Below the pieces are notes generated by a model. The model was not told the origin of the DNA, searched no databases, and worked only from the letters and a program-made list of their open reading frames with translations. The position numbers and the translations under genes are program-made. Below are positions 37,778 to 47,814 of a DNA stretch of 64,000 nt, piece by piece. The stretch's first letter is position 1. Every line of letters starts with the position of its first letter. The DNA is from Acidobacteriota bacterium (lineage in GTDB: Bacteria; Acidobacteriota; Terriglobia; Acidiferrales; UBA7541): contig JABCZR010000009.1 in NCBI GenBank assembly GCA_013289585.1, positions 1-64,000 of the forward strand. The letters are read 5' to 3'.

Positions 37778-38392
37778 TTATTTAACTACGTTCACCGTCA
37801 CTTCGACTTTTGTTACGCGTCCAGAGACGGGGTCGGTCGCCAAGGTCGATTGGATGGTCTGACCGTCGCGGATAAACAGATCCACTTCGGTTTTAAACTG
37901 TTGGATTACCGGTTGGCTGACGAGCACTTCATTTCCGCTAATTGCGCTGGCTTTCTGACCGCTGCCGGAGGAGTACGCCGATGATCTCTCAAGATTCAAA
38001 TGTAGGTTGAACCGCCCGTTTTCCTCCTTGCTCGCCCATCCGTCGAGATTGGACCCTAAGTCGATGTATGTGAATTGCTGATTCACAGTTGAAGATTCGG
38101 ATCCAGACTTAAATGATCCCGTCACGACGGGAACGCGCAATCCCATCCGAATCGATGACTTGCTCCCTAAATGCCCCTCAGGAGCACCAACCAAGAGCGT
38201 GTAGGGCAAGCTGCTCATCTTTTTCTCGCCGTCGTACTCAGTGAAGACCACCTGCACACGCAACTCTGCGGCTTCTTTCTTGCTCTCGGCTCTCTTTTCG
38301 CTCTCTTCGGGCTTCGCCTTTTCCTGCGCTTTCACTGGCGAATGGAGCCCGGCAAAGGTACAAAACAACAAGGCGAGAATCACCTGGTTCAT
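37778..38392 (-). CDS. Secreted protein of unknown function, third gene of an ECF-sigma unit
   Basis: 204 residues from ATG 38392, with AGGAG 6 bases upstream. A signal peptide (residues 1-23, ending SPVKAQ) precedes a charged segment and a beta-rich domain: LRVQVVFTEYDGEKK, SSIRMGLRVPVVTGS, TYIDLGSNLDGWAS, then VIQQFKTEVDLFIRDGQTIQSTLATDP. The last segment recalls the beta-strand/DGQT pattern of secretin-type proteins, but no pore domain follows. It lies 55 bases after the anti-sigma factor, so it may be regulated by, or report to, that pair. No family name was recognised. Confidence 0.72.
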   Translation of the reverse strand: MNQVILALLFCTFAGLHSPVKAQEKAKPEESEKRAESKKEAAELRVQVVFTEYDGEKKMSSLPYTLLVGAPEGHLGSKSSIRMGLRVPVVTGSFKSGSESSTVNQQFTYIDLGSNLDGWASKEENGRFNLHLNLERSSAYSSGSGQKASAISGNEVLVSQPVIQQFKTEVDLFIRDGQTIQSTLATDPVSGRVTKVEVTVNVVK

Positions 38393-38447
38393 ATTTTTCT
38401 CCTGAACAGCTCTCTCATTTGCAAGACGACTCAGCCGCCTCAATGGT

Positions 38448-39131
38448 TCAACGAACGCCAGGCTGCGCGCCATCGAGCGCCTTCACATCAATTGGGGCAA
38501 GCGTGAGCGGGACAATCTGCAAGTCCTGAGACTGGTGGCCGCTTCCATCCGCCAACAGCACTTCTCCCTTCACTTCACCGCGACGCAGGCCATCGAGAAG
38601 CCGGGCAATTACGTCCGGCTGCTCGGCCGGCACAAAAGCTCGTGGTTCCTCAGGATCGGGAGAGGGATTCGCTTGATTCGGCCGGTGTCGCCGCGCGGGG
38701 TCGTACAGCAGGTGTTCTGTGGGTGGATTTCCAGGCCGTGACGCGGGGCTCTCAACGGGAAGCACGCTACTGGCTACCTGATTCGAATCGATCGGCCGCT
38801 CATTCGTCTTAAATCGCACGCCGCGGAAAGAAAGGAATCCAATGAAAAGAGCTACTGAGGCCGCGACTGCCGCCCATGCGGGAATCCAGCGGCTCTGCGG
38901 CGCGGCTGCTTGGTCAAGGCGGGCGCGGACGCGCGGCAAGAGAGAAGGTGGCATCTCGACGTTGGCCGTGGCGTGAAGGCTCGCATCAATCGAAGAAAAG
39001 AGAGATTGTTCTTCAGCAAAGGCACCGCGGCACGCGGCACAGGCAGCGAGGTGCGCGCGCAGTTCCCCTTGCGGCTCGGCACCGGTGGCGGCGGCTTCGA
39101 CTAACGCGTTTTTGTAAGGCTCACATGGCAT
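38448..39131 (-). CDS. Anti-sigma factor with zinc-finger (zf-HC2) and one transmembrane helix
   Basis: 227 residues from ATG 39131 (MPCEPYKNAL), which overlaps the sigma-factor gene by 31 bases. The N-terminal zinc-binding pattern H-x3-C-x2-C appears as LRAHLAACAACRGAF. A transmembrane helix lies near residues 83-103 (WIPAWAAVAASVALFIGF). The periplasmic part is Pro-rich and ends in a small domain (VIARLLDGLRRGEVKGEVLLAD). It should hold the ECF sigma factor at the membrane and release it on an envelope signal. Confidence 0.85.
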   Translation of the reverse strand: MPCEPYKNALVEAAATGAEPQGELRAHLAACAACRGAFAEEQSLFSSIDASLHATANVEMPPSLLPRVRARLDQAAAPQSRWIPAWAAVAASVALFIGFLSFRGVRFKTNERPIDSNQVASSVLPVESPASRPGNPPTEHLLYDPARRHRPNQANPSPDPEEPRAFVPAEQPDVIARLLDGLRRGEVKGEVLLADGSGHQSQDLQIVPLTLAPIDVKALDGAQPGVR

Positions 39132-39694
39132 CGCAACTTCTCCGCTAATTTTTTCCGGGCAACAAAAATTCTGGACTTTACGGTACCGACAGGAATGGCG
39201 AGCAACGCCGCGATTTCGTCGATGGTGTGGCCCTCCATGGCGGCCAGTAAAAGCACGAGACGCAGTTTTTCCGGCAGCTCTTCGAGGGCGCGATCGAGAT
39301 GCGTTTGAAATTCGTTTGAAGCGGCGATGTCCTCGGCGTTGGCGGGGTGCGGCTGATAGGCCGGTTGCGACCATTCCAGATCGCGCAGGTCGCGGCGCTT
39401 GGCGGAGCGCAAGCGATCGAGCGCGATGCGGAAGGAGATTCGAACGAGCCAGCCACGGAAGCGGTTGCGGTCACGCAGGCGGTGGAAACTGCGGTAGGCG
39501 CGGAGCAGGGCTTCCTGGGCAACGTCCTCGGCGTCGGCGGTATTGCGCAAGACGCCGCGCGCGACACGGTACGCCAGCGGACCGCATTCGACGAGGCGCT
39601 CTTCGAACTCGTGCCGGGCGTCAGCTTGAGCTGCTTCGCGCGACGACTCACTCCGTATGGTGCCGCCTGGCTGGATCAGAACCAGCTCCTGCAT
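39101..39694 (-). CDS. ECF-type RNA polymerase sigma factor
   Basis: 197 residues with both helical regions of group-IV sigma factors. Region 2 is AYRVARGVLRNTADAEDVAQ followed by ALLRAYRSFHRLRDRNRFRG and ISFRIALDRLRSAKRR. Region 4 is ALEELPEKLRLVLLLAAMEG with the helix-turn-helix TIDEIAALLAIPVGTVKSR. The gene overlaps the anti-sigma gene, as expected for a translationally coupled pair. Target promoters are unknown; auto-activation is usual for the family. Confidence 0.93.
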   Translation of the reverse strand: MQELVLIQPGGTIRSESSREAAQADARHEFEERLVECGPLAYRVARGVLRNTADAEDVAQEALLRAYRSFHRLRDRNRFRGWLVRISFRIALDRLRSAKRRDLRDLEWSQPAYQPHPANAEDIAASNEFQTHLDRALEELPEKLRLVLLLAAMEGHTIDEIAALLAIPVGTVKSRIFVARKKLAEKLRCHVSLTKTR

Positions 39695-39827: not shown

Positions 39828-40205
39828 CTAAATGCCTAGTTGCCCGAGGAGGGCTTCCAGGTTGGATGCATCGACGGCCACTTCGCCAGCCTCGGCTCCC
39901 TCAAGGGGGACCTTTACAGAGTCTTCGTCGAAGGCTTGAAAGAGGCGCATCTTGGCCACCGCGTACTCTTCACTGCTGGTAAGGGGACGGCCATTTTGGG
40001 CGGCCCAGGCTTCGAGGGCCGATTGGTGGACGAAAATCTTGAAGCGAAAAGCGGACTGGCGATCGACAGAAATGGCGTAGGTAAATTCGCCGCCGGAACC
40101 GCCGTTGCGCTGCGCGCGATTCCCTTCATAGAAGTAATACTGGTAGACGTAGCCGTTGGCGGCGGAGTAGCTCTTGACGCGACGGACAGCATCGGGGCGA
40201 GGCAT
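39828..40205 (-). CDS. Hypothetical cytoplasmic protein
   Basis: 125 residues from ATG 40205. No known domain was recognised. The sequence is well formed: VKSYSAANGYVYQYYFYEGN, FTYAISVDRQSAFRFKIFVH, AVAKMRLFQAFDEDS and an acidic C-terminus ending LEALLGQLGI. The aromatic-rich N-terminal third suggests a small beta-sheet domain. No Shine-Dalgarno is evident; the frame extends to 40265 without sensible residues. It is 133 bases upstream of the sigma gene on the same strand. Confidence 0.6.
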   Translation of the reverse strand: MPRPDAVRRVKSYSAANGYVYQYYFYEGNRAQRNGGSGGEFTYAISVDRQSAFRFKIFVHQSALEAWAAQNGRPLTSSEEYAVAKMRLFQAFDEDSVKVPLEGAEAGEVAVDASNLEALLGQLGI

Positions 40206-40490
40206 AAGCGGATTATTTGTTGGCGGAGCGCGGAAGTCAACGCTCCGAGGGCAGGAGAGGGGCAATCCCGAATCGGCACCCGAGCTTGGGGAACGCGTTC
40301 CGGATTGGGACAGCCTGCAAGAGCCGCCTGCAATGTCCAGACCAGCGCAGCCTGAATCACAATTCCCGCGGAAATCGAATAACTTGCAAATTTACAGTTG
40401 ATTACAAGATTAGCGTCGCAATCCCCCGCACAACACCAACTCGATATGACATAAGTTTTTCGCTGGCCCTTCGCCTGCATTGCGGAGGGT

Positions 40491-41951
40491 GTGCGGCCTC
40501 TCACGCAAATCGGGAAAAAGAAATTCGGGAGTACGCGAACCGTTTTCGTCGCGCTTCTCACGACGGGGGCATGGACGCAGGGCTGCGGCGGAGGAGGCGC
40601 AAGCTCTGCAGTGCCCCCGCCGCCACCTCCTCCTTCCATCGCGGTTACGGTGACGCCAAAGAACGGGTCGGTGCTGCTCGGAAATACGGCGACATTTTCC
40701 GCCACGGTAACAAACACGACGGATACGAGTGTGAATTGGAGTGTGAATGGCATGGCAGGCGGGAGCCCAGTCGTCTGCACCATTACACACGACGGCGTGT
40801 ACACCTCACCCGCGGATCTGCCCTCGCCCGCGAACGTGCAAATTGCGGCAACAAGCCATGCAGACGTCACGAAGTCAGATTCGGCTGCAGTGACGGTCAC
40901 GAGTGACATTTCACTTTCCGTGACGCCCAACCCAGCAAGTGTAGAGCTCGGCGCAGTTCAAGGATTTCACACGACGGTAGCGAGCAGCGGGCACCCGGAT
41001 ACGGCTGTGCGGTGGAGCGTATCGGGCGCGGGGTGCGCAAGCGGCTGCGGAGCCGTGGATGCGAGCGGGAATTATCCGGCACCGCCGATTCTTCCATCGC
41101 CGCCGAGCGTAACGCTGACGGCGCAAAGTGTGGCCGATCCTTCAAAGCAGATTTCGTCGGCTGTGTCGGTTACCAGCACATTTTCGCTGCAAATCTCCGC
41201 GCCATCGAATGTGCCGGCGGGGGGTCGGCGACGATTGTTGCAACACTGACTCCGGTTCCAGGGTCGGCGCCGAGCGAAGTGCTGGTGTGGTCCTTGAGCG
41301 GCGCGGGCTGCAGCGGAGCAAGCTGCGGAACGTTGAGCGTGGTGACGACGCAAGCGACCGGCGGAAACAGCATGCAGGCTGTGGCAACGTACACCGCGCC
41401 GGTTTCGACTCCAAACCCAAACATCGTGACGGTAGCGGTAACTCCGCAGGCGGACCCTTCGAAAGAGACCCAAGCCACGGTAGCGATCCAGGCGGGAGTC
41501 AGCGTAAGCGTTTCGCCCTCGACGGAGACGCGCTTCGAGGTGGTTGAGCGGAGCAAAGGACGGCTGCCGGGTTTGGTGACGATCCGGAGCATGGGGGGAA
41601 GAGTAGGCAGCCTGCATTCTCGAATCGATGGAGTGCCGGCGTTTCACGCAGGAGAGGAAGCGTACTTGTTTCTGTGGGGACGCGAAGGCAAGCATTGGAG
41701 GGTGGAGTTGCGCAGCGCCGGGCCCGACGCAATTTGATGGCAGCTATGAGATTGACGGCCTCGCGGTCGGGCACAGTTACACGGTTTATGCGGAGCCGCT
41801 GAATGGGGCGGTTGATCCGTCCCAGATTGGTAACGCGCTCGTTCCGCTTTGCCGAAATGCGATGACGGACGCAGGATGGCCGCCGCTGCAAGGGTGTGTG
41901 GTGCCCGCGGTGGATACGAGTTTTACTACGCGGACTCGGCCTGGGCCTTGA
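40491..41951 (+). pseudogene. Frameshifted gene for an Ig-like (BIG-type) surface lipoprotein
   Basis: Three frame segments join into one protein. Segment one (40491 to about 41218) has a signal with lipobox-like Cys (AWTQGCGGGG), a proline run and Ig-like repeats (SIAVTVTPKNGSVLLGNTATFSATVT, abbreviated; SLSVTPNPASVELG). At 41219-41224 a run of six G shifts the frame; with seven G the reading continues as SATIVATLTPVPGSAPSE. A second shift near 41715-41735 leads to FDGSYEIDGLAVGHSYTVYAEP and a stop at 41951. The gene may be inactivated, phase-variable at the G run, or affected by sequencing error. No intact copy is in the window. Confidence 0.7.
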
Positions 41952-42064
41952 GGAGAGTTTTCGGGGAACAGAGAGGAGAGAACAGAGAGCGAGATCAAAG
42001 AACAGAGATCAGGGAGCAGAGATCAGTAGCGGATGGTCTCTCATGGGTGACTGATTCTTGCGCA

Positions 42065-43381
42065 CTACACCGATCGCAATGCAGAGGTGTGAGTCCAATC
42101 GCTGGGAGTGAGCCAGCCGCCTCCAAAGAGGAGGCCGGGACCGAGCGAGGCGAGGAAAATGGGCTGGCGTCGATTTGAATCGTCCTGTAAGGCGGCGTGG
42201 AGGGCGGCGCCGCACGTGGAGGAGCCGAGATTGCCGTAAGTTCGCGCGATGGGCGGAAACTTTTTCGGGGAGACGGCGCATTGTTTTGCGAGCAGAGCGA
42301 CTAGGCGAGGGTTTGGCTGGTGAGTGGCAAAGCTTCCTACGGAATCGCGCGGGATTCCGCTGCGGAGCTCCACGGCGGCGAGAACCTTTTCCAAGCGCGT
42401 GATGGCCGCGCGGGAGAGCGCTTCGCCGTCGAATTTCACGTCGAGACCTCCCTCCCTGGTGTCATTGACCTGAATGGCAGCGGCGTACTGGCCGGCGCAG
42501 CCGAAAAGGAAATCGCCGAGCTGATAGCCCTGGTCGGCGCTGTCCGCGCGGCGAAGAAGAAAAGCGCTGGCGCCGTCGCCAAAGAGGCCGCCGAATTCGC
42601 CGGCGACGCGCGCGGGAGTCAGCGTGCGACTGTGGACGTCGGCAGTAACCACGGCGGCCGTTTGCGCCTGCCCCGAGCGAATGAGCGATTCCGCGACGGC
42701 AAACGCATGGAGCAAACCGAGGCACGCGCCGCCGACGTCGAGTGCGCCGCAATCTTCACGGAGAAGCAACCGGGAATGAAGCTGGGCGGAGAGCGAAGGA
42801 TAGTCGTGATGCGTTTCGCTGGTGGCGATGATCCAGTCGAGTTGCTGCGCTCCGCAGGAGGCAGCGCGTAGAGCCTCCTGCGCGGCGCGCGCGCCGAGCG
42901 TGAGCTCATTCTCGCCTTCGGCGGCGTAGGCGAGGGATTCGATTCCAGCGCGGCCGCGCAGTTTGCCGGGGGGCATCCCGAACGCGCGATCGACCTCTTC
43001 AGAAGGAACGATGCGCGAACCGACGGCTGCGGAACTTCCTGGAATGATTGCAGGCACCCCGTTCTTGGAAATGGGGCGCGGTGAGACATCGCGGGTCGCC
43101 CCGGAAGCGCGGGATCCACCGGTCTGAAGCGCGGCCAAAATAGCCGCGAAACTTGCGGCGCGATCGTTGAGATCGGAACCAAGTTCGCCAACGCCGCTCG
43201 CCGATTCGATGGTGCGCAGAAAACTGACCCAGCCCATGGAATCGAGAATGCCGCTCTCGATCAAATCCACATCGTCGGCGGGGAGCGGAGCGGAAAGGCC
43301 GGCCTCGCGGTGGAAGCATTCTTCGACGAGCCGGCGGAGGGGATCTTTTCCGTCAGGCCGAGAGGTGGGGAGCGGGGTCAT
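42065..43381 (-). CDS. Acyl carrier protein - ketoacyl-ACP synthase III fusion
   Basis: 438 residues from ATG 43381. Residues 1-85 look like a carrier domain: helix PLRRLVEECF, then DLIESGILDSMGWVSFL with S48 as probable phosphopantetheine site. After a short linker, residues 108-438 match FabH-type condensing enzymes: C220 (DVGGACLGLLHAF), H354 (FATHQPNPRLV) and N384 (TYGNLGSSTCG). Spacings of 134 and 30 are close to the FabH triad. FabH proteins are normally free-standing, so the in-line carrier is unusual. The ATG overlaps the previous stop (TGATG), making it the last gene of the DUF488 operon. The product could be an acylated or condensed metabolite; its substrate is unknown. Confidence 0.85.
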   Translation of the reverse strand: MTPLPTSRPDGKDPLRRLVEECFHREAGLSAPLPADDVDLIESGILDSMGWVSFLRTIESASGVGELGSDLNDRAASFAAILAALQTGGSRASGATRDVSPRPISKNGVPAIIPGSSAAVGSRIVPSEEVDRAFGMPPGKLRGRAGIESLAYAAEGENELTLGARAAQEALRAASCGAQQLDWIIATSETHHDYPSLSAQLHSRLLLREDCGALDVGGACLGLLHAFAVAESLIRSGQAQTAAVVTADVHSRTLTPARVAGEFGGLFGDGASAFLLRRADSADQGYQLGDFLFGCAGQYAAAIQVNDTREGGLDVKFDGEALSRAAITRLEKVLAAVELRSGIPRDSVGSFATHQPNPRLVALLAKQCAVSPKKFPPIARTYGNLGSSTCGAALHAALQDDSNRRQPIFLASLGPGLLFGGGWLTPSDWTHTSALRSV

Positions 43382-44094
43382 CAGAACTCCTGGAGCCACT
43401 CGTGCTTGGGGAGTGGAAAAAGAGTGTCGAGCATTAGCCAGCAGAGATCGTGAAAAGGCCTGGTGAGGCCGAGCCGGATAAAGTGATGCGGGCAAGACAT
43501 GATTTTGTAGTGAAAGTCAGAGTTCAAGAAGCGCTCGAGGCGAGCAGTGCGATTGGCGCCGCGGCCCTCGGCTAACGCGGCATCGATGAAGTCGCGCCAG
43601 TCGCGGTCGACGACGGGAAGATCGCGCAGGACTTCTCCCGAAGAGAGAGCCAGAGTAGCGCGGAGCTCGTTGGCGCAAAGTTCCAGGCGCAGGTTCTGCG
43701 TTTCGCAGCCGCAAATGGAACGTTTGGCATCGCGCGGAATCGCAAAGAGGCCGCTTCCTTTTTTATTTTCGTGGATAGCGCATCCAAAGAGATCGGGCAA
43801 GGATTGCGCAAGCTCCGACTTGCGGAGATAGACGACGGTTTCGGCTTCGGGGACGGTTGTGACTCTTGTAAATCCGCGCGTGGAGACACGGTCTTCGACG
43901 TGAGGTTTCACTCCGGAAAAAGGTGTCAGGGCACATTCGAGGATGTCGCCTCGGCGATGAGGGAAGTGCGACCAGCCGTTCGCGAAGGATGGCAGCGGGC
44001 GGATCGATTGGATTTTCTCGTTCTCCCGCTGGAGGCCGATGACACAAAATGCCGGGCCCATGCGCGTGATTTCGGTGATGAGGAGTTTGGTCAT
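43381..44094 (-). CDS. Probable dual-OB-domain protein of the DUF488 operon
   Basis: 237 residues, no enzyme motif recognised. The start, LLITEITRMGPAFCVIGL and then IQSIRPLPSF, resembles the dual OB-containing (DOB) proteins often found near DUF488 genes; this is from memory and moderate in certainty. Two short barrels could fit 1-90 and 90-200. Cysteines cluster in LFGCAIHENKKG, SICGCETQNLRLELCA and the later SCPHHFIRLGL, so a metal site is possible. The gene overlaps the upstream DUF488 gene as ATGA and the downstream fusion gene as TGATG. OB folds often bind nucleic acids, which is only a hint here. Confidence 0.65.
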   Translation of the reverse strand: MTKLLITEITRMGPAFCVIGLQRENEKIQSIRPLPSFANGWSHFPHRRGDILECALTPFSGVKPHVEDRVSTRGFTRVTTVPEAETVVYLRKSELAQSLPDLFGCAIHENKKGSGLFAIPRDAKRSICGCETQNLRLELCANELRATLALSSGEVLRDLPVVDRDWRDFIDAALAEGRGANRTARLERFLNSDFHYKIMSCPHHFIRLGLTRPFHDLCWLMLDTLFPLPKHEWLQEF

Positions 44095-44600
44095 GGCGCT
44101 GCGCCGATTTTTCCTCGCCGCGTCTTCCCCGGCTTGGTGCGCGCCGAAATCAAATGACGAATTTCGACGTCGTGGCCCTCACTGCGCCAGCGCGTGGAGA
44201 GGAGATCCGCAACGAGGCGGCGGTGGCACTGCTCGGGCTCAGCCTCGGAGCAAAGAAGCGCGACCTTGGATGGCCAGCTTGCGGTGCTGAGCGATTGCGG
44301 AACGCCACGAGCATGCATCAACGTGAGGAAGGCGGTTTCGTAAGCAGGCCAGTCCTTGTTCTTGCGATAAGTCTTGAGGAGTTCGGGAGTGGGCGCGAGA
44401 AGCGGCTCATGAACGTACTCGATGCCGGCAATTTTCTGAAGGAAATAGGAGAGGTCGGGATGCTTGGCATAACCGGAAAGCTGACCACCGCGGTTCTGAC
44501 GAATATCAATGAGCCGCTCGACTCCGGCTTCCTCAAGAAGGGCAAAGAACTCTTGCGCTGTTTTTCCCGCGAAGCCGATGGTGCAGAAGAGGTATCGCAT
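44091..44600 (-). CDS. DUF488 protein, second of the pair
   Basis: 169 residues of the DUF488 family (function unknown). Conserved features are the opening YLFCTIGFAGKTAQEF, the VERLIDIRQNRGG strand-turn, and the family hallmark LLCSEAEPEQCHRRLVADLL (C-x7-C-H-R). The C-terminus is basic (ARTKPGKTRRGKIGAAP) and could contact nucleic acid. It starts 5 bases after the first DUF488 gene stops and overlaps the next gene by 4 bases, so coordinated, near-stoichiometric expression is likely. Confidence 0.85.
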   Translation of the reverse strand: MRYLFCTIGFAGKTAQEFFALLEEAGVERLIDIRQNRGGQLSGYAKHPDLSYFLQKIAGIEYVHEPLLAPTPELLKTYRKNKDWPAYETAFLTLMHARGVPQSLSTASWPSKVALLCSEAEPEQCHRRLVADLLSTRWRSEGHDVEIRHLISARTKPGKTRRGKIGAAP

Positions 44601-44605
44601 GGCGC

Positions 44606-45241
44606 TCAGAAATACTCGATGGCCTCGAGGGAAGTGCGAAAGGCAAATTCGTCGGCTTGCTGGCGGAGCGCTTCTTCCAGGGCGGCGCCGCGCTCGGAGA
44701 CGAAGAGCGCGCCGCTGGTGAAAGCAGAGCCGCCGTGCAATTCAAGCAAACGATCCTCGGCGTCGCGCTGCGATTCCGGAATGCCGCCGCGGCGGAGGTG
44801 TACGGGCACGACGCCACGCTCGATGAGCGCGGGGCAAATCATCAGGAAGCGGTGGCACTGTAGCGGATCTTCTTCGGCGCACATCAGCGCAATGCTAGCC
44901 AGCCGCGATAATTTCAGAAGGCGATCGACGCCAGCCGAGAAATCCGGAGACTTACGGCGCGCCACGTAATCCACTTGACCGTTCGAACGGTACACGCGCG
45001 GATCTTCGGGGCGCCCACCCAGAGTTTCCCCGAGAAATTGATATTGGATTTTTGCGCAAGCTGCCGCGGCCTCCAGCGGTTCGCGATTGAACTGCGGGAA
45101 GCGGAAGCTCCCAGGGCGGCTGCGAACATCACAGAGCGCCTCGACGCCGTGACGGACGAGGATGGCGAAAAAATCGCCAAGGTCATGATTCGAATGGCCA
45201 ATGGTGAACAGTACGTTGCCGGTGGCGTTCGATGGTGTCAT
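44606..45241 (-). CDS. DUF488 protein, first gene of the operon
   Basis: 211 residues from ATG 45241. It has the canonical family start LFTIGHSNHDLGDFF, then ALCDVRSRPGSFRFPQFN and the hallmark LMCAEEDPLQCHRFLMICP (C-x7-C-H-R). It is clearly a different paralogue from the second copy, which lacks the HSN and RSRP motifs. A 35-codon upstream extension to 45346 has no conserved sequence and was rejected. The 236-base gap to the divergent TonB-dependent receptor gene must hold the operon promoter. Confidence 0.87.
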   Translation of the reverse strand: MTPSNATGNVLFTIGHSNHDLGDFFAILVRHGVEALCDVRSRPGSFRFPQFNREPLEAAAACAKIQYQFLGETLGGRPEDPRVYRSNGQVDYVARRKSPDFSAGVDRLLKLSRLASIALMCAEEDPLQCHRFLMICPALIERGVVPVHLRRGGIPESQRDAEDRLLELHGGSAFTSGALFVSERGAALEEALRQQADEFAFRTSLEAIEYF

Positions 45242-45477
45242 GGAGGGGCGCTCGGAGGGCCAAACCGTATTTTGCCGAAAGGCGGCTGGGGCGGCAAGCG
45301 CGGGAATTCGGGAAGAGTGTTGCCATTTTGCCGGCCCGGCCCGCACCGATCTCGCGGGGCCAAACGGACTTCATGCTAACGTTTAGAGAGTCCGTTCAAC
45401 GCATTACGAAACGCCAGGTAACAGGGAGAACGGGGCGGGCCAATGACAAACGGCGCGGTCCCGATCGAACGTCAGAA

Positions 45478-47814
45478 ATGTTCTTGAAAAAAACAATTGG
45501 TCTCATGGGGGCCGTGGCGCTGCTCTTTCTCTGGCCACAGGGGGCGGAGGCACAGCGCGTAAAGGGTGAGCTGCACATCGAGGTCCACGACGCGCAGGGT
45601 ACGGTCGTGGCGCCTTCGGGGGAGCTCGTCAGCGAGGCCAACCAGTTTCGGAGGACATTTGTTACCGGGCTGGATGGGCGATACGTGGCTCAAGGTCTTC
45701 CTTTTGGTGTTTACCGGCTGAGTTTGCATGCGGACGGTTTTGCGCCCTGGAGCAACCTGATCGAGATCCATTCGGAAGTGCCGGTGCGCGCTTCCATCAC
45801 GTTGGGTGTTGCGCCGGTCACCACCCAAGTGCAAGTGACGGATTCGGCGACGCTTGTGGACCCGAGCCGAACGGGAGCGGTTTATTCCATCGGCCAGCAA
45901 GCCATCGACGAGCAACTCTCCGCACAGCCCGGGCGCGGCCTTTCGGATCTGGTGAACGATCAGCCGGGTTGGCTCTACGAAGCGAACGGCATTCTGCACC
46001 CGCGAGGCTCCGAATACGACGTGCAATATGTTTTCGACGGGCTTCCGCTCACTCAGAATCGCTCGCCGGCTTTTGCGCCGGCGTTTGACGTGGACGACGT
46101 GGAGTCCATGCGCGTTTTGACGGCGGGGTTCCCGGCGGAATACGGGCGGAAGCTTGGAGGAGTCATCGAAGTCACGACAGTGAAGGATGTGCCGAGCGGC
46201 GTGCACGGACAAATTGACGCAGGCGGCGGGAGTTTCTCGACGTTCGCCGGTTCCGCGGCGCTTTCCTACGCCGAAGGCAAAAACCGTTTTTCGGTAAGCG
46301 GCAATGGATTTCGTACGGACCGTTATCTGGACCCGCCGGTGCTCGAAAACTTCACCAACGTGGGCAATGCAGGCGGTTTTTCGGCTTCCTACGAAAGAGA
46401 CTTTTCGGATCGCGACCGCTTGCGCATTTCGGTAATTCACAACGAGGTGAGCTTCCTGGTCCCCAACGAACTTGTGCAGCAGGAGGCGGGACAGCGTCAG
46501 AACATTGCGAACAGCGAGACTGCGGGGCAAATATTTTTTCAGCACACGATTTCTCCGGACCTGTTCCTGAGTTTTTCCGGCAGCGTGCGGGATGCCAGCG
46601 CCACGCTGAATTCGAATGCGTCTTCAACGCCGATGATCGCGTTTCAGAATCGCGGCTATCGCGAAGGGTATGTCCGCGGGGACCTCGCCGGGCAGCACGG
46701 GAATCACAACTGGAAGGCCGGAGTGGATACGCTTTTTGGGCCGGTGAACGAGGCCTTGCATTATCTGATTACAGATCCATCGCAGTTTGATCCGGGGACG
46801 CAGACGCCGTTTCAGTTTGCGGACCGCCGCTGGGATGTCGAGCCATCGGCGTACCTACAGGACCAATGGCATCGAGGGAATTGGAGCGTCAGCGCGGGGC
46901 TGCGGTTTGATTACTACGCATTTGTGGTTCATCAGGCGGCGCTGAGCCCGCGGGTGGGAGTCTCGCGTTATGTTCCGTCCTGGAATTTACTCGTACATGC
47001 TTCCTATGACCGAATCTTCCAGACGCCTGCGGTGGAAAACCTCTTGCTCGCAAGCTCTCCGCAAGTGGTTTCCATCGATCCGGTGGTATTGCGGCTGCCC
47101 GTGTTGCCCGCGCGTGGCAATTATTATGAAGCGGGCATAACGAAGTCCTTCCTGGGAAAATTGCGGCTGGAGGCGAATGTTTTCCGGCGCGATTTTCATA
47201 ATTTCCCCGACGACGATGTGCTTTTGGATACCGGCATAAGTTTTCCGATCGCCTTTGAGAGGGCGCGTGTCTCCGGTGAAGAAGTGCAAGTCGCGGTGCC
47301 GCAGTGGGGCCGCTTCTCCGGCTTCGTGAGTTACGCGAACCAGTCCGGCATCGGCCAGGGGCCTATCACCGGCGGGCTGTTTCTCGGCGACGACGCAGCC
47401 AATGCATTGACGGACACCAGCAAGTTCGCGGTTTCTCAGGACCAGCGCAACACGGCCCGGGCGCGCGTTCGCTTCCAGGCGGAGCGGAGGATCTGGCTGG
47501 CGATGAGCGCGCAATATGGGAGCGGACTGCCGGCGGATACGGGCGGCACGGATACGGCGACTCTCGTGGAACAGTTTGGCCCGCAGATCGTGAATCAGGT
47601 GAATCTGGAAAGAGGGCGAGTGCGGCCGAATTTTTCGCTGGATGCCGCGGCGGGGGCGGACTTATTTCGCAAAGAACAGCGAAGCGTGGCGCTTCAAATC
47701 CAGGTGACGAATCTGACGGACAAAGTAAATGTGATTAATTTTGAGAGTTTGTTTTCGGGGACGGCGGTGGCGGTGCCGCGGAGTCTCTCGGCGCGCTTGA
47801 AATTTACCTTTTAA
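45478..47814 (+). CDS. TonB-dependent receptor with carboxypeptidase-regulatory-like domain
   Basis: 778 residues from ATG 45478. Signal peptide 1-26 (MFLKKTIGLMGAVALLFL, then GAEAQ). Residues 30-110 form the N-terminal beta-sandwich (TGLDGRYVAQGLPFGVYRLSL). The plug follows (GRGLSDLVNDQPGWLYEANG, VQYVFDGLPLTQNRSP, RVLTAGFPAEYGRKLGGVIEV) and then a barrel to the terminal aromatic LKFTF. It should import a nutrient across the outer membrane using TonB energy; the substrate is unknown. It diverges from the DUF488 operon. The region is GC-rich with short runs of purines before the ATG. Confidence 0.9.
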   Translation: MFLKKTIGLMGAVALLFLWPQGAEAQRVKGELHIEVHDAQGTVVAPSGELVSEANQFRRTFVTGLDGRYVAQGLPFGVYRLSLHADGFAPWSNLIEIHSEVPVRASITLGVAPVTTQVQVTDSATLVDPSRTGAVYSIGQQAIDEQLSAQPGRGLSDLVNDQPGWLYEANGILHPRGSEYDVQYVFDGLPLTQNRSPAFAPAFDVDDVESMRVLTAGFPAEYGRKLGGVIEVTTVKDVPSGVHGQIDAGGGSFSTFAGSAALSYAEGKNRFSVSGNGFRTDRYLDPPVLENFTNVGNAGGFSASYERDFSDRDRLRISVIHNEVSFLVPNELVQQEAGQRQNIANSETAGQIFFQHTISPDLFLSFSGSVRDASATLNSNASSTPMIAFQNRGYREGYVRGDLAGQHGNHNWKAGVDTLFGPVNEALHYLITDPSQFDPGTQTPFQFADRRWDVEPSAYLQDQWHRGNWSVSAGLRFDYYAFVVHQAALSPRVGVSRYVPSWNLLVHASYDRIFQTPAVENLLLASSPQVVSIDPVVLRLPVLPARGNYYEAGITKSFLGKLRLEANVFRRDFHNFPDDDVLLDTGISFPIAFERARVSGEEVQVAVPQWGRFSGFVSYANQSGIGQGPITGGLFLGDDAANALTDTSKFAVSQDQRNTARARVRFQAERRIWLAMSAQYGSGLPADTGGTDTATLVEQFGPQIVNQVNLERGRVRPNFSLDAAAGADLFRKEQRSVALQIQVTNLTDKVNVINFESLFSGTAVAVPRSLSARLKFTF

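What the first reader, a model, noticed from the sequence alone, without database searches (positions are those of the whole stretch)
42065..45241. Four-gene operon: DUF488 - DUF488 - dual-OB protein - ACP/KAS III fusion
Seen: four minus-strand genes with spacings of 5 bases, ATGA overlap and TGATG overlap, so they must be made together. Two are different DUF488 paralogues, one is a probable dual-OB protein, and the last couples a carrier domain to a condensing enzyme. Known: DUF488 has no settled function, and OB folds often bind nucleic acids. Inference: a locus combining a possible nucleic-acid or small-molecule module with acyl transfer or condensation. I know of no described pathway with this set, and the divergent TonB receptor may import or sense its substrate.
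Basis: partly seen in the sequence, partly recalled or inferred. Interest (0 to 1): 0.8.

Follow-up and report, generated by a model that had tools for sequence, protein, structure and literature searches.

The report
DUF488–DuOB operon with ACP–ketosynthase fusion
Four neighbouring genes in a soil bacterium, kept in the same order in two bacterial families, join a predicted but untested phage-defence module to an enzyme that builds and carries fatty-acid-like chains, which suggests a chemistry to test for a family of unknown function.

Summary
In detail: four minus-strand genes, 45241-42065, with a 5-base gap, an ATGA and a TGATG overlap. Genes 1 and 2 match PADLOC's PDC-M45B and PDC-M45C (7.6e-53, 2.8e-48). 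Gene 3 is a divergent dual-OB (DuOB-like) protein, the kind that defines PDC-M45A, though Pfam and PADLOC models miss it. Gene 4 is an ACP domain fused to a KAS III domain; the ACP serine is kept in 20 of 21 ACP domains read. The order recurs in two families: of 379 class genomes 22 have gene 3, and in 21 of these an ACP domain is next to it. In the genus the KS domain often occurs alone, and the ACP is then missing too: of 34 KS-bearing genomes examined, ACP and OB are both present in 14 and both missing in 20. So the ACP goes with the DUF488/DuOB module; the TonB receptor does not clearly do so. I read a PDC-M45-like module coupled to its own acyl supply. Coupling is well supported; acyl chemistry and any defence role are inferred. 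New variant of a known, uncharacterised kind.

The parts
44606..45241 (-). D1: DUF488 protein, 211 aa, PDC-M45B-like
   Evidence: PF04343 1.6e-19; PADLOC PDC-M45B 7.6e-53; 36-39% identical to the M45B proteins of three plasmids
44091..44600 (-). D2: DUF488 protein, 169 aa, PDC-M45C-like, also over the DUF488-N3a ('active') cut-off
   Evidence: PF04343 2.6e-19, PF22751 3.4e-12; PDC-M45C 2.8e-48; 47% identical to three plasmid M45C proteins; AlphaFold2 mean pLDDT 85.3
43381..44094 (-). OB: divergent dual-OB (DuOB-like) protein, 237 aa
   Evidence: No library hit at E<=1; its family profile's best outside hits among 5444 ORFs are two Pfam-recognised DuOBs; two viral proteins in the DuOB position at 1.7e-7 and 1.9e-7
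43127..43381 (-). ACP domain (about residues 1-85) of the fusion; Ser48 codon 43238-43240
   Evidence: DSM motif kept in 20 of 21 ACP domains read (lost in G326); sub-threshold PP-binding and DltC hits
42098..43057 (-). KAS III domain (about residues 109-428); Cys220, His354, Asn384
   Evidence: PF08545 3.4e-13, PF08541 1.3e-10; Cys, His and Asn kept in 12 of 12 aligned fusions and in 33 of 33 KS sequences
45242..45477 (.). Intergenic region between the operon and the divergent TonB-dependent receptor (likely start of the latter 45478, read from the sequence); no sigma-70-like promoter found
   Evidence: 0 promoter-like sites in 41700-45600, 0.5 expected from shuffles

Best explanation
The operon is one functional unit: a PDC-M45-like module (two DUF488 proteins plus a DuOB-like protein) supplied by its own acyl-carrier/condensing enzyme. 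Most likely working: the DuOB-like protein holds a nucleic acid, nucleotide or similar ligand; the two DUF488 proteins act on it or on the acyl donor; the fused KAS III makes or loads an acyl or beta-ketoacyl chain that the ACP domain carries on a phosphopantetheine arm and hands to that module. Shown here: conserved gene order, conserved active-site residues, purifying selection on all five modules, joint presence and absence of ACP and OB, KS kept alone elsewhere. Inferred: phosphopantetheinylation, acyl chemistry, the ligand of OB, transfer to it, and any role against phages.
For: Of 379 class genomes 22 have the OB protein, all in two families (15 in f1, 7 in f86). The ACP domain is next to it in 21 of 22, the KS follows in 20 of 22 (G424's contig ends first; G307 is a deletion), and apparently intact D1-D2 lie upstream in 20 of 22. 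Of 34 KS-bearing genomes examined, ACP and OB are both present in 14 (G326, decayed, counted as present) and both missing in 20. No starred clade of the triad tree conflicts with the KS tree. G309 and G323 are 91% and 93% identical on the two sides, with no blastn match between, from the TonB side to the start of the KS domain. ACP serine kept in 20 of 21; KS Cys-His-Asn in 33 of 33. In G326 the triad is decayed and the ACP has lost its serine region, while the KS frame is intact.
Against: No biochemical or phage data. The KS persists without the module with its residues intact, so it has another role and could be a neighbour co-opted only for expression. DUF488 genes also survive alone beside the KS (D1 in G330 and G331, D2 in G298), so the unit is not all-or-none. 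No KAS or ACP match was found at seven triads of other lineages or at the viral loci, so acyl supply is not general to the module. The ACP assignment rests on a motif and position more than on a library match. OB and ACP adjoin, so single deletions can remove both; and presence of the block is hardly more clustered on the KS tree than in shuffles (102 of 500 as low), so exchange of alleles may blur the history.
Confidence: 0.5

Rival explanations
1. A small biosynthetic operon, not defence: the ACP-KAS III fusion starts a short acyl chain and the DUF488/DuOB-like proteins tailor or attach it to a metabolite, nucleotide or cofactor.
For: Flanking genes are conserved at the locus across much of the genus sample; six window neighbours scanned by Pfam include BaxI_1, bPH_2, an ECF sigma factor and a secretin-like protein and no mobile-element gene; triad and KS trees do not conflict. 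The genome has three further KAS III-type hits, the best a stronger PF08545 match than this one (98.5 against 53.3 bits), so this one is free for a special task.
Against: Those six neighbours include no adenylation, reductase or thioesterase gene (neighbours in other genomes were not annotated). Triads elsewhere lie beside csm6/cas1/csx16 and beside CBASS genes on two of three plasmids (not on the third) and on viral contigs.
Confidence: 0.25
2. Neighbourhood without shared work: the triad sits upstream of an old KS gene and the ACP extension is a passive by-product.
For: KS without any remnant of the block is a common state (16 of 33 tree rows); the TGATG overlap may only serve translation.
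Against: Same five-module order in two families; ACP dN/dS 0.10-0.26 in 5 of 6 pairs, the sixth not computable; serine kept in 20 of 21.
Confidence: 0.12
3. The ACP-KAS III fusion is a sensor or regulatory subunit: the module monitors acyl-ACP or malonyl-CoA supply (or its disturbance by phage) and the DUF488/DuOB-like proteins respond.
For: Carrier proteins can act as sensors of fatty-acid state (SpoT-ACP, recalled); fusion plus overlapping genes fits fixed stoichiometry.
Against: Intact catalytic residues suggest catalysis rather than sensing alone; no nucleotide-synthetase or toxin domain was recognised in D1, D2 or OB.
Confidence: 0.13

Closest known systems
PADLOC PDC-M45 (candidate phage-defence system: DuOB + DUF488 + DUF488)
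   Same: D1 and D2 match the B and C models strongly; a DuOB-like third partner; adjacent genes; both orders, A-B-C and B-C-A, occur elsewhere
   Different: OB too divergent for the A models; B-C-A order; plus an overlapping ACP-KAS III gene not found at seven triads of other lineages or at the viral loci
FabH / KAS III
   Same: Both KAS III Pfam domains and the Cys-His-Asn triad; best PDB hit by sequence a 3-oxoacyl-ACP synthase 3, 3il3
   Different: Below the curated FabH cut-off (127.2 of 292.1 bits, TIGR00747); N-terminal ACP fusion; not the genome's strongest KAS III hit
Pfam DuOB (PF22557)
   Same: Profile similarity to two recognised DuOBs, a shared PH[VIL]E[DN] segment, and a C-terminal RLGL-type segment shared with two bridging viral proteins
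   Different: No match to the Pfam model itself at E<=1
RapZ C-terminal domain (a fold lead only)
   Same: D2 model aligned at Z 8.0, 3.2 A over 107 residues, 17% identity
   Different: Z at the edge of the background range the tool gives; Foldseek had no hit at E<=0.001

Membership tests
PDC-M45 (PADLOC) | B component (DUF488) | tested here: met
   PDC-M45B 7.6e-53
PDC-M45 (PADLOC) | C component (DUF488) | tested here: met
   PDC-M45C 2.8e-48
PDC-M45 (PADLOC) | A component (DuOB) by PADLOC's models | tested here: not met
   No hit at E<=1 for the window protein or three congeners; one A model, PDLC04656, found nothing in the own genome (whose controls did not ring either). Hence 'PDC-M45-like', not a member
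PDC-M45 (PADLOC) | Anti-phage activity | not testable with these tools
   Candidate system; 0 library papers hold 'PDC-M45'
DuOB (PF22557) | Score over the Pfam cut-off | tested here: not met
   0 families for the window protein and three congeners
DuOB (PF22557) | Homology to recognised DuOBs | tested here: met
   OB profile against 5444 ORFs: after its own family come the DuOBs of G047 (8.5e-4) and G246 (9.8e-3), then 0.32; the reverse profile's next-best hits are OB proteins (0.0036, 0.0039). Direct comparison with plasmid DuOBs gave nothing
DuOB (PF22557) | Two OB folds | tested here: inconclusive
   AlphaFold2 model poor, mean pLDDT 44.5 on 5 sequences; beta-rich N-terminus
KAS III | Catalytic Cys-His-Asn | tested here: met
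   C220, H354, N384 invariant in 12 of 12 fusions; kept in 33 of 33 KS sequences
KAS III | Condensing activity | not testable with these tools
   Needs an enzyme assay
Acyl carrier protein | Phosphopantetheine serine in a DSx motif | tested here: met
   DSM in 20 of 21 ACP domains read; the serine region is deleted in G326
Acyl carrier protein | Pfam PP-binding over cut-off | tested here: not met
   E 0.15, 12.8 of 20.8 bits in the window protein; 1 of 12 fusions at E<=0.01 (0.0063)

The most novel reading that the evidence does not exclude
A DUF488/DuOB conflict module that works by acyl chemistry: a dedicated ACP-KAS III makes a chain that the module attaches to, or uses to inactivate, a nucleic acid, nucleotide or other phage- or self-derived ligand held by the DuOB-like protein.
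Probability: 0.15. Interest if true: 0.88.

Novelty: new variant of a known kind. Interest (0 to 1): 0.6.

Why it matters
DUF488 is widespread and I found no settled reaction for it: 25 library papers name it (listing and abstract openings seen), and the two I read passages of give a ParB-fold fusion that binds CTP and a plasmid neighbourhood, not a reaction. PDC-M45 is a prediction. A natural fusion of ACP and KAS III that is inherited and lost with DUF488/DuOB genes points to an acyl chain as a possible substrate or product, and gives single residues (Ser48, Cys220) with which to test it. The KS-only congeners are a ready-made natural control.

Tried and rejected
TonB receptor as part of the system: not supported. 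It is beside 5 of 11 congeneric full operons (window; G323, G312, G327; G308), 12 of 19 KS-only or single-DUF488 loci and not at the decayed G326. One search found none in 7 stretches outside the genus, but only G341 and G426 have 4 kb or more upstream of D1 there; the others end too near.

Pure chance adjacency: rejected; same order in two families.

Repeated independent gain of the block: less likely than loss or allele exchange, because triad and KS trees do not conflict and partial remnants exist (G326, G307, G298, G330, G331). The KS tree needs 10 changes for any remnant and 8 for the full or decayed block; the label is hardly more clustered than in shuffles (102 of 500 as low for the full block, 148 of 500 for its absence). 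The independent-pairs count (5 contrasts on starred branches, 8 on all) only counts contrasts, since ACP and OB coincide in every row; 5 cannot reach p 0.05.

Direct profile comparison of OB with plasmid DuOBs gave nothing; only intermediates link them. First AlphaFold2 job (OB, 5 rows) gave no usable model. Fold search of D2: no Foldseek hit at E<=0.001; VIA-align matches (CobF 8.7, RapZ 8.0, PTP-type phosphatases 6.4-7.6) are in or just above the background the tool describes. PDB by sequence: D1 alone and the D1 profile gave only chance-level hits, the D2 profile none. Viral scan with D2 alone found no relative; alignments did. Window OB against plasmids by tblastn: no match. An OB alignment mixed with viral DuOBs added no new genome in the phylum sample (3 of 297). 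Searches in print: DUF488 / dual OB (mostly unrelated), PDC-M45 0, DuOB / DUF488-N3 (listed papers unrelated), PRTase-CE / Calcineurin-CE (unrelated), KAS III with anti-phage 0, PADLOC/PDC terms (listings seen). Of PMC12988326 I saw passages: PDCs described, M45 and DUF488 not mentioned in its main text.

Rows dropped or special: G325 (its contig starts at the KS) was not fetched; G321 is out of the KS tree because my extraction cut it to 13 residues. Genomes carry handles only; that L056=G323, L058=G322, L057=G314, L059=G326, L066=G327, L064=G309, L069=G298 is inferred from equal contig lengths, so searches are not independent sets. The 12 fusions were chosen among the loci and leave out the decayed G326.
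Full report
WHAT IS THERE. D1 and D2 are both over the DUF488 cut-off and D2 also over that of DUF488-N3a, which Pfam calls the active subclade. OB has no library match at E<=1. Gene 4 has both KAS III Pfam domains, a weak carrier-protein signal and is far below the FabH cut-off. The genome has four KAS III-type hits; this one is the second, and a hit on contig C6 is much stronger (98.5 against 53.3 bits).

A KNOWN CANDIDATE SYSTEM UNDERNEATH. PADLOC names D1 PDC-M45B (7.6e-53) and D2 PDC-M45C (2.8e-48). On three plasmids the neighbour of such a pair is PDC-M45A, and this A protein is Pfam's DuOB. Near two of the three lie cas1, csx16 and csm6 (Allochromatium) or CBASS cyclase and HORMA genes (Agrobacterium); the third (Rhodovastum) shows no annotated defence gene nearby. 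In a sample of 297 genomes of the phylum DuOB is in 5, each time beside a DUF488 match. Of 18 distinct IMG/VR contigs behind 22 loci, 6 hold a complete triad (5 as DuOB-D1-D2, 1 as D1-D2-DuOB) and 4 more a DuOB-type protein with one DUF488; none of the 22 loci showed an ACP or KS match. Seven triads of other lineages (L037, L038, L043, L044, L070, L072, L073) gave no ACP or KS profile hit among 1038 ORFs.

IS OB A DuOB? By Pfam and PADLOC models, no. Two viral proteins in the DuOB position match the OB profile at 1.7e-7 and 1.9e-7 and align along most of its length at 21% and 27% identity; whether Pfam recognises these two was not tested. Direct comparison with the plasmid DuOBs gave nothing. 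The structure model was too poor to show the folds.

THE OPERON IS CONSERVED. A scan of genome contigs with gene 4 gave 14 loci, 13 titled Acidobacteria bacterium (10 of them labelled gp2) and one Acidobacteriaceae. Four (L056, L057, L058, L066) carry the whole set, L059 a decayed one, L069 only D2 and the KS, the rest only the KS. A scan of 379 genomes of the class with an OB alignment gave 22 hits, in two families only: 15 in the window's family and 7 in family f86. I looked at the surroundings of all 22: the ACP domain is next to OB in 21 (in G326 without its serine), the KS follows in 20 (G424's contig ends; G307 is a deletion), and apparently intact D1-D2 lie upstream in 20 (G326 is decayed; G438 meets its contig end, and its OB frame is interrupted). 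G308 and G332 are split over two contigs. The carrier's DSM motif is kept in 20 of 21 ACP domains read (lost in G326). In 12 chosen fusions D47-S48-M49, C220, H354 and N384 are invariant; Cys, His and Asn are kept in 33 of 33 KS sequences, with or without the block. dN/dS is 0.07-0.26 for the five modules in six pairs, 29 of 30 estimates; dS is near or at saturation in the wider pairs, so G303-G306 (0.11-0.19) is the safest.

ACP GOES WITH THE MODULE, KS DOES NOT NEED IT. Of 61 genomes (own and relatives), 35 have the KS at E<=1e-60. I examined 34 of these (not G325). In 14 both ACP and OB are present (G326, decayed, included); in 20 neither is. Of those 20, two keep D1 (G330, G331) and one D2 (G298). 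A 15th OB genome, G307, has a broken OB and no KS. The KS-only proteins have a short leader in place of the ACP. Between G323 (full) and G309 (KS only) DNA is 91% and 93% identical on the two sides, with no match between, from the TonB side to the start of the KS domain. In G326 D1 is frameshifted, D2 and OB are fused by a deletion and the ACP lost its serine region, while the KS frame is intact. On the KS tree 8-10 changes are needed, and the pattern is hardly more clustered than in shuffles. Five independent contrasts on well-supported branches, eight on all, carry the ACP/OB coincidence; five cannot reach significance. No starred clade of the triad tree conflicts with the KS tree. The simplest account is an old operon, lost or exchanged many times, whose KS has a second use. 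Because OB and ACP adjoin, single deletions can take both; that weakens the co-loss argument, not the conservation in f86.

THE TonB RECEPTOR IS PROBABLY A NEIGHBOUR, NOT A PART. It is beside 5 of 11 full congeneric operons (window included) and 12 of 19 KS-only or single-DUF488 loci, and not beside the two operons outside the genus with enough upstream sequence to tell (G341, G426).

FOLD OF D2. The model from 16 sequences has mean pLDDT 85.3. Foldseek finds nothing at E<=0.001. VIA-align ranks CobF (Z 8.7), the RapZ C-terminal domain (8.0) and PTP-type phosphatases (up to 7.6) first. The conserved C-x-E-x-x-P-x-x-CHR of DUF488 recalls phosphate-binding loops of such proteins; this is a recalled resemblance, not a test.

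HOW IT MAY WORK. Shown: shared order and inheritance, intact residues, selection. Inferred: the ACP is armed with phosphopantetheine, the KAS III loads or extends an acyl group, and OB plus the two DUF488 proteins use it on a bound ligand. I give 0.5 that module and fusion act together in this way, 0.25 to a biosynthetic operon unrelated to defence, 0.13 to a sensing role and 0.12 to mere neighbourhood.

NOVELTY. The triad is a known, untested candidate system. The ACP-KAS III addition was not found elsewhere in what I searched: 0 of 104 plasmid records with a KAS match cover 80% of the fusion, seven triads of other lineages and the viral loci lack it, and no paper was found in the searches named under Tried and rejected. 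Genomes of other phyla were not searched for the fusion except through the one genome-contig scan, which finds close relatives only. Hence a new variant of a known kind.

Noticed in passing
L044 6467-8159; L043 7509-9413: D1-D2-DuOB triads in the same order as the window but without an ACP or KS match, in other members of the phylum sample (G047, G246).
   Followed up: partly
L070, L073 (plasmids): DuOB-DUF488-DUF488 triads near csm6/cas1/csx16 and near CBASS genes, which fits a conflict role of the triad elsewhere.
   Followed up: partly
L134 5480-6749: G307: a deletion fuses OB after about residue 43 to sequence before the gene that is at window 39828-40265; ACP and KS gone.
   Followed up: partly
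L133 / L059: Decaying operon with intact KS frame: D1 frameshift, in-frame D2-OB deletion, ACP serine region lost. Could in part be assembly error of a 5.8-kb contig.
   Followed up: partly
L150 4832-6596, L151 4890-6653, L147 5721-7201: Single DUF488 genes kept next to the KS without OB or ACP (D1 in two genomes, D2 in one).
   Followed up: no
window 37778-39694: ECF sigma factor followed by a protein with a weak DUF3379 match (possible anti-sigma, inferred) and a secretin-like protein.
   Followed up: no
window 44091-44600 (D2): Predicted fold weakly like the RapZ C-terminal domain and PTP-type phosphatases; a possible lead to an anion-binding site at the CHR motif.
   Followed up: partly
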